DNA of 64,000 nucleotides from Syntrophorhabdaceae bacterium (GTDB taxonomy: Bacteria; Desulfobacterota; Syntrophorhabdia; Syntrophorhabdales; Syntrophorhabdaceae). Where the stretch lies: contig JAOAGQ010000060.1 of assembly GCA_026415675.1 (NCBI GenBank), positions 1 through 64,000 of the forward strand, written 5' to 3'. Each line of letters opens with the position of its first letter. Position 1 is the stretch's first letter. Of this stretch, positions 1,161 to 24,655 are shown piece by piece. The position numbers and the translations under genes were made by a program. The notes beneath the pieces were generated by a model. That model worked only from the letters and a program-made list of their open reading frames with translations, did not search any database and was not told the origin of the DNA.

Positions 1161-1589
1161 ATGGCAAAAAAAGTCGTTGCGATGGTGAAATTGCAGTTAC
1201 AGGCAGGTCAGGCTACACCCTCTCCTCCTGTTGGACCGGCCCTGGGCCAGCACGGGGTGAACATCATGGAATTCTGTAAGGCTTTTAACGAGAGGACGAG
1301 ATCCCAGGAGGGGACCGTGATTCCCGCCCTGATAACCATATATTCCGACAGGACTTTTACATTTGTAACGAAGACACCCCCTGCTACATTTTTGATCAAA
1401 AAGGCGGCAAAACTCGCTAAAGGGGCAAATAACCCCAAAAAGGAGACAGTGGGAACCATTACAAAGTCCCAGGTCAGGGAGATAGCCCAGCTTAAGATGC
1501 CGGATTTAAACGCAAAGGATTTAGACAGTGCGATAAAGATCATAGAGGGTACAACAAAAAGTATGGGAATCCAGGTGGTGGAAGGGTAA
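1161..1589 (+). CDS. rplK: 50S ribosomal protein L11
   Basis: A 142-residue protein of normal L11 length that begins [20 protein letters not shown] and continues [22 protein letters not shown], both signatures of the family. L11 forms the GTPase-associated centre together with 23S rRNA and L10-L12. The ATG at 1161 has an AAGGAG ribosome-binding site. It is part of the secE-nusG-rplK-rplA unit. Confidence 0.96.
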
Positions 1590-18555: not shown

Positions 18556-18783
18556 TCATAACTCCCTGAACTCGTTTATCGGGACAAGCTCAGAGAGGGC
18601 AGCCTTCACCCTGTCCTTATCTTCGGTTAAAAATCTCACGCATACACCACAGTCTGAACTTATACTCCTCGGGACGGGGATCACCTTATGGGGTATACCT
18701 GCCTTTTTAAGTATCTTTTCCGCCTTTATAACATGGCCTACAGAGACAAAAAGGGCTACCGAATACCTCTCTTCCTTGTTCAA
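18556..18783 (-). CDS. DUF3343 putative Se/S carrier-like protein
   Basis: A 75-residue protein that fits the DUF3343 (putative Se/S carrier) family: RYSVALFVSVGHVIKAEKILKKAGI, KVIPVPRSISSDCGVCVRF. The CGVC pair is the likely persulfide or perselenide carrier site. It overlaps the yedF stop by 4 bp, so the two are translationally coupled. Partnering with a cysteine desulfurase and YedF is a known arrangement and suggests it receives S or Se from them. The final acceptor is unknown. Confidence 0.85.
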   Translation of the reverse strand: MNKEERYSVALFVSVGHVIKAEKILKKAGIPHKVIPVPRSISSDCGVCVRFLTEDKDRVKAALSELVPINEFREL

Positions 18784-19379
18784 GGTTTCACAATCCTCCC
18801 TGCCGTTAAAAGGGTGGTGGCTATTGTGTACATATTCGAGATTGTCCCTATGGATATTTTGTTCTGGATATTAAAATAGTTGACACACGTACCGCAGATA
18901 AGGATCTTTATGCCCATACCTTCCAGTTCTTTTAAATCGTCGGCTACCCCGGAGTCTGAGGTCGTAAGCATTACCCCCTTATTGTAGAACACCATTATAT
19001 CGGGCTTATTATCCAGTTCTCTTAACGTATGGATATAGGCCTTCATCAGAATGGCCCCGAGTTCATCGTCTCCGTGTCCCATTATGTTAGACGTAAAGAG
19101 TATGACCATGGGCCCCGAACTGTTGCCGCATATTTCACTTTTTGGTGGCTCCGCCGAGGATAATCGGGTCGATCTTTTAATCTCTATTCTATAGGTACTA
19201 TCCGCCTCTTCATTTACATTGATGGTACACCCCATGCTTACCGCAAGGCGCTCCACATTCTCCAGGGCCGTTTCGTTATCCACTAAGACCACGATTTCAT
19301 CCTTTCTATGGAGGGCCTTTTTTGTAAGGACAACAGGTTCAGGACACGATAGACCCCTCGCATCGATTATATCCGCCAT
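18780..19379 (-). CDS. yedF: Sulfurtransferase-like selenium metabolism protein YedF
   Basis: A 199-residue two-domain protein. Residues 1-70 are TusA-like with the RGLSCPEPV motif (active Cys12). Residues about 88-199 are DsrE-like with a CGTC motif (C162, C165), giving two thiol sites on one chain. In selenium-using bacteria this family occurs with selenium-trait genes. It lies between the desulfurase (9 nt upstream) and the Se/S carrier. A relay of S or Se from desulfurase to YedF to carrier is inferred. Confidence 0.88.
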   Translation of the reverse strand: MADIIDARGLSCPEPVVLTKKALHRKDEIVVLVDNETALENVERLAVSMGCTINVNEEADSTYRIEIKRSTRLSSAEPPKSEICGNSSGPMVILFTSNIMGHGDDELGAILMKAYIHTLRELDNKPDIMVFYNKGVMLTTSDSGVADDLKELEGMGIKILICGTCVNYFNIQNKISIGTISNMYTIATTLLTAGRIVKP

Positions 19380-19388
19380 AATGTCCTC

Positions 19389-20567
19389 CTACCTTTCTCG
19401 ATTATAATATGTTTTTGCGATCTCTTCTATCGCCTTTATGCCATAGAGGATCTCTTCCTCTGTGTTGAAGAACCCGAAAGAGAAACGAACGGTGCCCTGG
19501 GGAAACGTACCTATGGTTCTATGGGCCGATGGGGCACAGTGGAGCCCCGGTCTCACCATTATCCGATATTTTTCATCGAGTTCAGAAGAAATATCGGAGG
19601 GGCTTACACCTCTTATATTGAAGGAGACGGTGCCAGTCCTTCTACTTGGATCATCTACCCCGTAAAGCATAACCCCCTCTATCCCCTTTAAACCATCAAG
19701 AAATATCTTTGTCAGGGTTTTTTCTCTTGCTCTTATCCGATCCACCCCCTGCCCGAGGACGAACCTAACACTTGCCGCAAGCCCCGCAAAACCTATGCCG
19801 TTTGGGGTTCCTGACTCATACTTATCCGGGAGAAAATCGGGCTGTCTCTCAAATTCTGAGGCACTCCCCGTACCTCCCATCATCAAAGGAGACAAAAATT
19901 CCTCCAACCCCTTTCTTAAATAAAAACCCCCTGTACCCTGCGGTCCATATAGGGATTTGTGGCCAGAGAAACATAGGATATCTATCCCTACCTTTATCAC
20001 GTCTATCTCTCTATTCCCTATCGTCTGGGCTGCATCAACGAAAAAGAATATACCATGTTCTTTGGCCACCCTTGCAATCTCTTCTATGGGCATAACTGTT
20101 CCTGTTACATTCGAGGCATGGGTGATAGCTATCATTTTTGTATGTTTATTGATTGCACCCCTTATATCATCAAGATCTATCTCCCCGGAAGGGGAACACA
20201 AAACTGTCGATACGGTTACACCCTTTGTTTCGAGAAATCGAAGGGGTCTCATAACAGAGTTATGCTCCATACTCGATGTGATCACATGGTCCCCTTGCTT
20301 CAAAAGTCCCATAAGACAACAGTTAATCCCTTCCGTTGCGTTTTTAGTCAGTATGATAGATAATGGGTCAGGGGCATTTATGAGTTCGCATATCAGTTCC
20401 CTTGTTGAGTAGATTACCCTTGCCGCCTCTATTGATAACCTGTGTCCTGAACGGCCAGGGTTTGCCCCTATAGAATCGTTGAAAGCCACCATCGCCTCGA
20501 TCATTTCCTTTGGTTTGGGCCATGTTGTGGCTGCGTTGTCGAAGTATATTAAACTTTCCCCATCCAT
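19389..20567 (-). CDS. Cysteine desulfurase-family PLP enzyme
   Basis: A 392-residue class V aminotransferase-fold protein. The PLP lysine is in CFSGHKSLYGPQG (K204), with ASNVTGTVMP, a FFVDAAQTIG motif and a catalytic Cys in RPGLHCAPSAH (C344). This matches the cysteine desulfurase subfamily commonly found beside YedF and DUF3343. It would remove S from cysteine, or Se from selenocysteine, and load a Cys persulfide. The ATG follows AGAGGA. The gene is preceded by a long leader with a terminator, which implies transcript-level control. Confidence 0.87.
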   Translation of the reverse strand: MDGESLIYFDNAATTWPKPKEMIEAMVAFNDSIGANPGRSGHRLSIEAARVIYSTRELICELINAPDPLSIILTKNATEGINCCLMGLLKQGDHVITSSMEHNSVMRPLRFLETKGVTVSTVLCSPSGEIDLDDIRGAINKHTKMIAITHASNVTGTVMPIEEIARVAKEHGIFFFVDAAQTIGNREIDVIKVGIDILCFSGHKSLYGPQGTGGFYLRKGLEEFLSPLMMGGTGSASEFERQPDFLPDKYESGTPNGIGFAGLAASVRFVLGQGVDRIRAREKTLTKIFLDGLKGIEGVMLYGVDDPSRRTGTVSFNIRGVSPSDISSELDEKYRIMVRPGLHCAPSAHRTIGTFPQGTVRFSFGFFNTEEEILYGIKAIEEIAKTYYNRER

Positions 20568-20617: not shown

Positions 20618-20651
20618 AATAAAAAAATCCGGCCGCAGTTTTCTGCGCCGG
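20618..20651 (-). terminator. Intrinsic terminator in the csd-yedF leader
   Basis: On the minus strand the stem CCGGCGCAG / CTGCGGCCGG with an AAAA loop (20629-20651) is followed by A and seven T (20621-20628), then more T. This is a clear Rho-independent terminator. It lies 50 nt before the csd ATG and about 165 nt after the predicted promoter, the layout of a conditional attenuator. It could instead end an independent small RNA. Confidence 0.8.
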
Positions 20652-20809
20652 AGACCCTTTAAGTCGTCTGGTGGGCTAAAGCGTAGAGACTGCGGATATG
20701 CCATCAAAAGGAGAAGGAAGCCGTACCGGCCTCCAATTTCTCTTTCATTTCAATGGTATAAGGATATACAAACTATCTTCCCTCATCCCGGTTTTTTGTT
20801 GTAACATAA
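20652..20809 (-). ncRNA. Unassigned structured leader RNA of the csd-yedF operon
   Basis: This fills most of the 305-bp gap between the nuclease gene and csd. From a predicted start near 20809, the minus-strand RNA contains a hairpin GGAGGCC-GGTAC-GGCTTCC (about 20714-20732), a segment CCGCAG (20690-20695) that can pair with CTGCGG of the terminator 3' arm, and a 5' AAAAAACCGG that can pair with the terminator 3' end and U-tract. This gives competing folds, as in riboswitches. I compared it by eye with TPP, SAM, cobalamin, c-di-GMP and Moco types and found no match. Confidence 0.5.
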
Positions 20810-20815
20810 TAAAAC

Positions 20816-20844
20816 ATTTTAGATAAATTGATACGCAAAGTCAA
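20816..20844 (-). promoter_or_regulatory. Predicted promoter of the csd-yedF leader
   Basis: On the minus strand TTGACT (20839-20844) and TAAAAT (20816-20821) are separated by exactly 17 bp, each one base from consensus. Transcription would begin near 20809. It lies about 30 bp downstream of the nuclease gene stop, so the csd operon has its own start. Confidence 0.7.
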
Positions 20845-23932: not shown

Positions 23933-24655
23933 ATGGTCTATAAAAGGGTGCTTTTAAAACTAAGCGGAGAGGTCTTAACAGGGAGTCAGGGTTATGGTAT
24001 AGACCCCGAGATGATCACCTACATCTCCTCCCAGATTAAGGATATTTATGACCTCGGTATCGAGATCGGTATAGTGATCGGGGGAGGCAATATATACCGG
24101 GGTATAAAGGCAGAAAGACAGGGGATCGACAGGATAACAGGGGACTATATGGGTATGATAGCAACCGCTATCAACGGCCTTGCCCTGAAAGAGTATCTCA
24201 AAAGATCCGAGGTTGATGCGGTTGTCGTAAGTGCTATGGAGATAGGTAAGGTTGTAGAACCCTATGAGAGGGGAAAGGCATTGAAATACCTGGAGGAAGG
24301 TAAGGTCCTCATATTTATCTGCGGGACAGGCAACCCTGTCTTCACAACCGATACTGCCGCCGTTTTAAGGGCGATGGAGATGGATGCTAAAGTCGTCTTA
24401 AAGGCGACAAGGGTCGATGGGATCTACGATAAAGATCCCGAGATATACAACGATGCGATCTTTTTTCATGAACTCTCCTATGAGGATGTGTTGAAAAAAA
24501 AGTTGAAGGTGATGGATGCAACGGCCATAACCATCTGTATGGAACATAATATTCCCATTATAGTCTTCAACATAAAGGAAAAAGGAAATATGAGGAAAGT
24601 GCTAACAGGTGAGAGAATTGGAACAATCGTGAAGGGGGTAAAATATGAAGAGTGA
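23933..24655 (+). CDS. pyrH: UMP kinase
   Basis: A 240-residue amino acid kinase-fold UMP kinase: VLLKLSGEVL, VIGGGNIYRG, DYMGMIATAINGLAL, CGTGNPVFTTDTAA, GVYDKDP-type GIYDKDP, and VMDATAITIC. It makes UDP for pyrimidine nucleotide supply and is usually hexameric and GTP-activated. It overlaps frr by 11 bp. Confidence 0.96.
   Translation: MVYKRVLLKLSGEVLTGSQGYGIDPEMITYISSQIKDIYDLGIEIGIVIGGGNIYRGIKAERQGIDRITGDYMGMIATAINGLALKEYLKRSEVDAVVVSAMEIGKVVEPYERGKALKYLEEGKVLIFICGTGNPVFTTDTAAVLRAMEMDAKVVLKATRVDGIYDKDPEIYNDAIFFHELSYEDVLKKKLKVMDATAITICMEHNIPIIVFNIKEKGNMRKVLTGERIGTIVKGVKYEE

What the first reader, a model, noticed from the sequence alone, without database searches (positions are those of the whole stretch)
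20618..20844. Riboswitch-like leader before a cysteine desulfurase-YedF-Se/S carrier operon
Seen: a near-consensus promoter, about 160 nt of structured RNA, a clear intrinsic terminator, then the csd ATG 50 nt later. CCGCAG (20690-20695) can pair with the terminator 3' arm CTGCGG, and a 5' AAAAAACCGG can also pair with the terminator end, so alternative folds exist. No known riboswitch class fits by eye. Inference: it may sense a selenium or sulfur metabolite, such as a selenium form, cysteine or a persulfide. This is a candidate undescribed regulatory RNA.
Basis: partly seen in the sequence, partly recalled or inferred. Interest (0 to 1): 0.75.

Follow-up and report, generated by a model that had tools for sequence, protein, structure and literature searches.

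The report
Selenocysteine-sensing leader peptide attenuator
The 190-base RNA in front of this selenium-handling operon is probably not a riboswitch: it encodes a tiny peptide with a UGA codon read as selenocysteine, so the ribosome itself appears to measure whether the cell has enough selenium and, when it does, switches off the operon (and, in relatives, the selenium-free backup enzymes).

Summary
The leader is real and conserved; its interpretation changes. It lies on the minus strand: promoter 20844-20816, RNA about 20808-20620, terminator 20652-20621, csd ATG 20567. Rfam has no match. Homologues: 39 elements in 22 of 46 genomes of the order (Syntrophorhabdus group) and 17 in another class; 54 of the 56 share a short ORF with an in-frame UGA (window ATG 20786, UGA 20747-20745, stop 20678-20676), about 12 codons, UGA, then about 20 codons to a second stop. 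Right after UGA is a hairpin like the SECIS of the same genome's Sec-formate dehydrogenase. The 3' end of the ORF pairs with the whole terminator; both alternative folds covary. Regulated genes are selenium assimilation genes (csd, yedF, Se/S carrier, selD), a second selB with a selC*-type tRNA, and Cys isoforms of HdrA and formate dehydrogenase whose Sec isoforms lie elsewhere without the leader. Best reading: transcription attenuation by a selenocysteine leader peptide, ON when Sec-tRNA is scarce. Sec insertion, termination in vivo and the sign of control are inferred, not shown by experiment. No description of such a system was found in the open-access library searched.

The parts
20816..20844 (-). 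sigma-70-like promoter TTGACT-17-TAAAAT
   Evidence: TTGAC-type promoters upstream of most of the 38 elements
20620..20808 (-). leader RNA (transcription start inferred from the promoter)
   Evidence: homologues
20676..20786 (-). leader ORF MREDSLYILIPLK[U]KRNWRPVRLPSPFDGISAVSTL*; start codon ATG 20786 or TTG 20771 (TTG has the better Shine-Dalgarno, GAGGGAA)
   Evidence: codon statistics
20745..20747 (-). in-frame UGA, proposed selenocysteine codon and sensor
   Evidence: UGA in all 38 intact elements, second stop varies
20711..20742 (-). SECIS-like hairpin; upper stem GCC-GGUAC-GGC, apical loop 17 nt after the UGA
   Evidence: covariation (weaker than for the other two helices)
20681..20695 (-). 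antiterminator 5' strand CCGCAGTCTCTACGC (codons before the second stop)
20676..20678 (-). second stop (TAG) of the leader ORF
20621..20652 (-). intrinsic terminator: hairpin TCCGGCGCAGAAAACTGCGGCCGGA and T run
19389..20567 (-). csd, cysteine desulfurase/selenocysteine lyase-like (TIGR01977)
18780..19379 (-). yedF, selenium metabolism protein YedF (TIGR03527)
18556..18783 (-). putative Se/S carrier (PF11823, DUF3343)

Best explanation
A selenocysteine leader-peptide attenuator. Transcription starts near 20808; a ribosome begins the short ORF and meets an in-frame UGA followed by a SECIS-like hairpin. When SelB and Sec-tRNA(Sec) are plentiful the UGA is read as selenocysteine, the ribosome goes on about 20 codons to the second stop and there covers the antiterminator strand, so the terminator forms and csd-yedF-carrier is switched off. 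When selenium is short the ribosome waits or terminates at UGA, about 50 nt upstream; the antiterminator strand stays free, pairs with the terminator as that emerges, and the operon is transcribed. In many relatives a CCUCC before the terminator also pairs with the Shine-Dalgarno after it, which would add a translational layer; the window lacks this. Shown by computation: conservation, reading frame, UGA, SECIS likeness, covarying alternative folds, regulon. Inferred: Sec insertion, termination in vivo, sign of control.
For: (1) The 14 homologues first caught by DNA similarity, most through the terminator only, all carry an ORF with an in-frame UGA. Of 40 elements above 40 bits 38 have it; the first stop is UGA in 38 of 38, the second is TAA, TAG or TGA (28/5/5); the coding part after UGA is 57, 60 or 66 nt, so indels keep the frame. 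(2) A hairpin follows the UGA, loop at +17, upper stem CC-N5-GG; the own genome's Sec-formate dehydrogenase has GCC-GGUCU-GGC at +18 against GCC-GGUAC-GGC here. (3) tRNA-Sec and SelB in the own genome; all 22 element-bearing genomes of the order have SelB or tRNA-Sec over the cut-off. (4) Terminator and antiterminator both covary (cells changed on both sides 19 vs 2.9 and 26 vs 5.6 in shuffles, 0/500 reach); matched antiterminator duplexes are stronger than permuted ones (-25.0 vs -22.2, sd 0.42). (5) With a ribosome at the second stop the terminator forms in 38/38 (window 0.98); nascent antiterminator pairing is expected in 27/38 with the ribosome at UGA against 3/38 with it at the second stop. 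(6) Regulon: csd/yedF/carrier, SelD, SelB2, double-cubane reductase, MetNQ-like transporter, and Cys isoforms: HdrA NDCSMC against NDCSMU, FDH DHCARVCH against DHCARTUH, the Sec copies in the same genomes lying away from any element.
Against: No experiment. At equilibrium the terminator wins in most relatives even without a ribosome (28/38), so the switch must rest on co-transcriptional order; the window itself switches cleanly. With a ribosome at UGA in the window the two folds are nearly even (0.56 against 0.42). Covariation of the SECIS-like hairpin is modest. Codon-position bias after UGA is mixed, since the same bases also make RNA structure. A few elements in the order and most in the other class lack a U run and cannot use the same termination step. 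The models used for wider searches contain the UGA column, so only the first 14 homologues are unbiased for it.
Confidence: 0.83

Rival explanations
1. SelB-mediated repression without translation: the hairpin is a SECIS-like site that SelB with Sec-tRNA binds, as described for the E. coli selAB leader, and the short ORF is incidental.
For: The hairpin resembles a SECIS and the regulon is about selenium.
Against: Does not explain the conserved reading frame, the strictly UGA first stop, the interchangeable second stop next to the antiterminator strand, or frame-keeping indels.
Confidence: 0.08
2. UGA is an ordinary stop of a short leader peptide and the signal is something else about translation (initiation, release factor 2, or a sense codon), with the downstream part conserved only as RNA.
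For: The 3' part of the ORF is under RNA-structure constraint and codon bias there is mixed.
Against: UGA is never UAA/UAG in intact copies while the second stop is freely exchanged; a SECIS-like hairpin sits next to it; host genomes decode Sec.
Confidence: 0.05
3. Metabolite riboswitch for a selenium or sulfur compound.
For: Structured leader with alternative folds before a selenium operon.
Against: Every conserved block is accounted for by ORF, SECIS-like hairpin, antiterminator and terminator; the part before the terminator is not unusually structured (z -0.36); no Rfam class.
Confidence: 0.03
4. A free-standing small RNA that ends at the terminator.
For: Own promoter and terminator.
Against: In relatives the element lies directly before selenium-related or Cys-isoform genes, often with the Shine-Dalgarno pairing back across the terminator.
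Confidence: 0.01

Closest known systems
Amino-acid leader-peptide attenuators (trp, his, leu, ilv operons)
   Same: Short ORF, sensing codon, mutually exclusive antiterminator and terminator, ribosome position decides.
   Different: A single sensing codon, a UGA recoded with SelB and a SECIS-like hairpin; the sensed residue is selenocysteine; poor supply leads to termination or pausing at a stop codon rather than stalling on sense codons.
E. coli selAB 5' SECIS-like element (from my own knowledge; not read here)
   Same: SECIS-like hairpin in the leader of selenium genes, sensing SelB/Sec-tRNA status.
   Different: No Sec codon, no leader ORF and no terminator switch as far as I know.
HrsM (LysR-type) control of Cys isoforms in Methanococcus maripaludis (PMC11097638)
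   Same: Cys-containing isoforms, HdrA among them, are kept off while selenium is sufficient.
   Different: A DNA-binding protein in archaea whose signal is unknown; here a cis-acting RNA in bacteria.
selC* tRNA-Cys / selB* genes of Syntrophobacterales and Desulfobacterales (Mukai et al. 2017, as reviewed in PMC7609411)
   Same: Such a gene pair occurs downstream of the leader in two relatives (L123, L112).
   Different: The review section read describes the genes and their charging and mentions no regulatory leader.
Selenium gene cluster Sec lyase/YedF/DUF3343 (Lin et al. 2015, PMC5322559)
   Same: The operon regulated in the window.
   Different: That work proposes a LysR-type regulator; no such leader appears in the passages read.

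Membership tests
Leader-peptide transcription attenuator | short translated ORF upstream of the operon | tested here: met
   conserved frame, frame-keeping indels, conserved stop; translation itself not shown
Leader-peptide transcription attenuator | sensing codon(s) for the regulated nutrient | tested here: met
   invariant UGA with SECIS-like hairpin in Sec-decoding genomes, selenium regulon
Leader-peptide transcription attenuator | mutually exclusive antiterminator and intrinsic terminator | tested here: met
   covariation of both, ribosome-masked folding
Leader-peptide transcription attenuator | read-through changes with supply of the amino acid in vivo | not testable with these tools
   needs term-seq or a reporter assay
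Bacterial SECIS element | hairpin just downstream of UGA, apical loop about 16-37 nt away with G in the loop (range from my own knowledge) | tested here: met
   loop at +17, GGUAC; own Sec-FDH +18, GGUCU
Bacterial SECIS element | SelB binding and Sec insertion | not testable with these tools
   experiment required
Known Rfam riboswitch or 6S RNA | covariance-model score at or above the gathering threshold | tested here: not met

The most novel reading that the evidence does not exclude
A bacterial selenium regulon in which selenocysteine decoding itself is the sensor: one leader-peptide UGA, copied in front of many operons, switches cells between Sec and Cys isoenzymes and turns on selenium scavenging, with a transcriptional (terminator) and a translational (Shine-Dalgarno masking) form in two classes of the phylum.
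Probability: 0.78. Interest if true: 0.93.

Novelty: new variant of a known kind. Interest (0 to 1): 0.88.

Why it matters
How bacteria sense selenium and choose between selenoenzymes and their cysteine backups is largely unknown. This would be, to my knowledge, the first attenuator whose sensing codon is a recoded stop codon and whose sensed residue is the 21st amino acid, a purely regulatory use of a Sec codon in bacteria. It makes the question testable with a 250-bp reporter, marks a selenium regulon by sequence alone (double-cubane reductase, MauE/rhodanese and a MetNQ-like transporter become candidate selenium genes), and shows that gene callers overlook Sec micro-ORFs.

Tried and rejected
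Rfam at gathering score and at permissive E-values on the window and on relatives: only chance hits. Metabolite riboswitch: no aptamer-like conserved core. A blind scan of all flanks for further selenoproteins by TGA read-through gave antisense noise and was replaced by targeted FDH and HdrA searches. A pattern scan of genome contigs found 18 stretches; only the Deltaproteobacteria/Syntrophorhabdus-group ones score with the model, the others are chance. Weak matches G134, G405, G329, G450, G484 and window 24496-24585 lack the ORF and were dropped. Whether Sec-less relatives lack the element could not be tested well: only two of 46 genomes lack the Sec genes, and both lack the element.

Full report
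WHAT IS THERE. The leader lies on the minus strand between the end of an MBL-fold nuclease-like gene (20873) and csd (ATG 20567). The 191-nt leader folds better than all 200 shuffles (z -3.29), but the stretch before the terminator alone is unremarkable (z -0.36). Rfam gives nothing. The downstream genes are a cysteine desulfurase/selenocysteine lyase-like protein (TIGR01977), YedF (TIGR03527) and the putative Se/S carrier PF11823, a cluster proposed for selenium metabolism by Lin et al. (PMC5322559).

HOMOLOGUES. A DNA search of the 46 genomes of the order found a conserved terminator in about 14 places, several with conserved sequence some 100 nt further upstream. A covariance model (R1) then found 39 good elements in 22 of the 46 genomes, mostly one to three per genome, and one in a sample of 395 genomes of the phylum that lies outside the order (G414). 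With a second model (R2), 17 elements including G414 were found in that genome's class that carry the ORF described next. Record titles place the window's group around Syntrophorhabdus.

A SHORT ORF WITH AN IN-FRAME UGA. In the relatives the most conserved stretch reads as a peptide: M.RIANIFIPLG[U]..YREPGWLP..TVFAVSPP*. The first 14 homologues had been found by DNA similarity, most through the terminator only, so they were not selected for this ORF; all carry it (L040 with a GTG start and a TGA second stop, as L110). Of the 40 elements with more than 40 bits (39 in the order plus G414), 38 have the ORF. The first stop is UGA in all 38; the second stop is TAA 28, TAG 5, TGA 5 times. The coding part after UGA measures 57, 60 or 66 nt, so all indels keep the frame; the changed codons before UGA are more conservative than in column shuffles (1 of 200 reaches the observed value). 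The two exceptions look like decayed copies: L124 has UAA in place of UGA, L127 CGA near a contig end. In the window the ORF is MREDSLYILIPLK[U]KRNWRPVRLPSPFDGISAVSTL*, with ATG 20786 (or TTG 20771, which has the better Shine-Dalgarno), UGA 20747-20745 and TAG 20678-20676. The other class has its own version, YLLLFFTPLI[U]GADREPGWFS.KRR.AVSPP.

THE HAIRPIN AFTER UGA LOOKS LIKE A SECIS. A hairpin follows the UGA with its apical loop 17 nt away and an upper stem CC-N5-GG. The own genome decodes Sec: tRNA-Sec 72 bits, SelB 387 bits, and a formate dehydrogenase with one in-frame TGA. That gene's SECIS has its loop 18 nt after UGA and reads GCC-GGUCU-GGC; the window leader reads GCC-GGUAC-GGC. Covariation of this hairpin is present but modest. 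All 22 element-bearing genomes of the order have SelB or tRNA-Sec above the cut-off; the only two genomes without either have no element, too few for statistics.

TWO EXCLUSIVE FOLDS. The last codons of the ORF (window 20695-20681; consensus CGCAGUUUCUCCGCC) pair with nearly the whole terminator hairpin. Both helices covary: terminator 19 cells changed on both sides against 2.9 in shuffles, antiterminator 26 against 5.6, no shuffle reaching either, and slid controls lower. Matched antiterminator duplexes average -25.0 kcal/mol against -22.2 (sd 0.42) for permuted partners. In the window, folding without a ribosome gives the antiterminator (0.99), a ribosome on the second stop gives the terminator (0.98), a ribosome on UGA about half each. 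Across 38 elements a ribosome at the second stop gives the terminator in all; at equilibrium without a ribosome the terminator wins in 28, so the switch must work co-transcriptionally. In the nascent RNA, before the 3' arm is made, antiterminator pairing is expected in 27 of 38 with the ribosome at UGA and in 3 of 38 with it at the second stop. In many relatives CCUCC between the second stop and the terminator pairs with the GGAGG Shine-Dalgarno after it (matched -11.7 against permuted -10.55, sd 0.27); elements with poor or no U run, including most of the other class, may act on translation only. The window has no such pairing.

REGULON AND DIRECTION. First operons behind the elements: csd/YedF/carrier; double-cubane-cluster reductase NF040772 with its activase; MetNQ-like transporter; SelD; MauE/rhodanese; arsenosugar ArsS cluster; SelB2; HdrA; formate dehydrogenase alpha. 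The last two point to the direction. The HdrA genes behind elements read NDCSMC, while paralogues about 71-75 % identical in the same genomes read NDCSMU with a TGA and lie elsewhere without an element: of nine genomes with a full-length element-linked HdrA, eight show a TGA-bearing copy (one only as a fragment), and none was found for G015 (the residues were read directly in those sequences that aligned). The formate dehydrogenase behind the element in G021 and G032 reads DHCARVCH; the Sec copy elsewhere in the same genomes reads DHCARTUH. Cys isoforms and selenium acquisition are what a cell needs when selenium is short, as known for the Cys isoforms of Methanococcus maripaludis (PMC11097638). 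That fits ON when the ribosome does not pass UGA and OFF when it reaches the second stop.

MECHANISM AND CERTAINTY. Shown by computation: conserved frame and UGA, SECIS likeness, covarying alternative folds, selenium regulon with Cys isoforms. Inferred: that Sec is inserted, that termination occurs in vivo, and the sign of control. The closest principle is leader-peptide attenuation; the new part is that the sensing codon is a recoded stop. Ten searches of the open-access library found no such system; a 2026 review of prokaryotic selenoproteomes has no occurrence of 'leader', 'attenuat' or 'riboswitch'. Subscription papers could not be searched, so novelty is stated with that limit.

Noticed in passing
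L123:4569-6598 (-) and L112:1402-3423 (+): A tRNA-Sec-like tRNA with GCA anticodon and U73 (selC*-type tRNA-Cys) and a second SelB lie directly behind the Sec leader in two relatives, so the enigmatic selC*/selB* pair may belong to the selenium-shortage response.
   Followed up: partly
L097-L100, L102, just behind the leader: In one genus a short remnant of the double-cubane reductase reading frame (N-terminal part only) seems to remain between the leader and the HdrA or FDH operon, as if the leader had been captured from the reductase gene.
   Followed up: no
L124:2839-2978 (-), L127:1006-1141 (+): Decayed copies of the element in which UGA is UAA or CGA.
   Followed up: no
L222-L233, L235, L237-L240: Elements in another class of the phylum with a different conserved peptide; of those printed in full only L222 has a U run after the hairpin, so this may be a translational version of the switch.
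   Followed up: partly
L120:1056-1199 and 1393-1536 (+): Two nearly identical Sec leaders in tandem before one HdrA operon.
   Followed up: no
L117:1124-4367 (+) and many other loci: The double-cubane-cluster reductase (NF040772) with its activase is the commonest gene behind the leader, which suggests a role in selenium reduction or uptake for this enzyme.
   Followed up: partly
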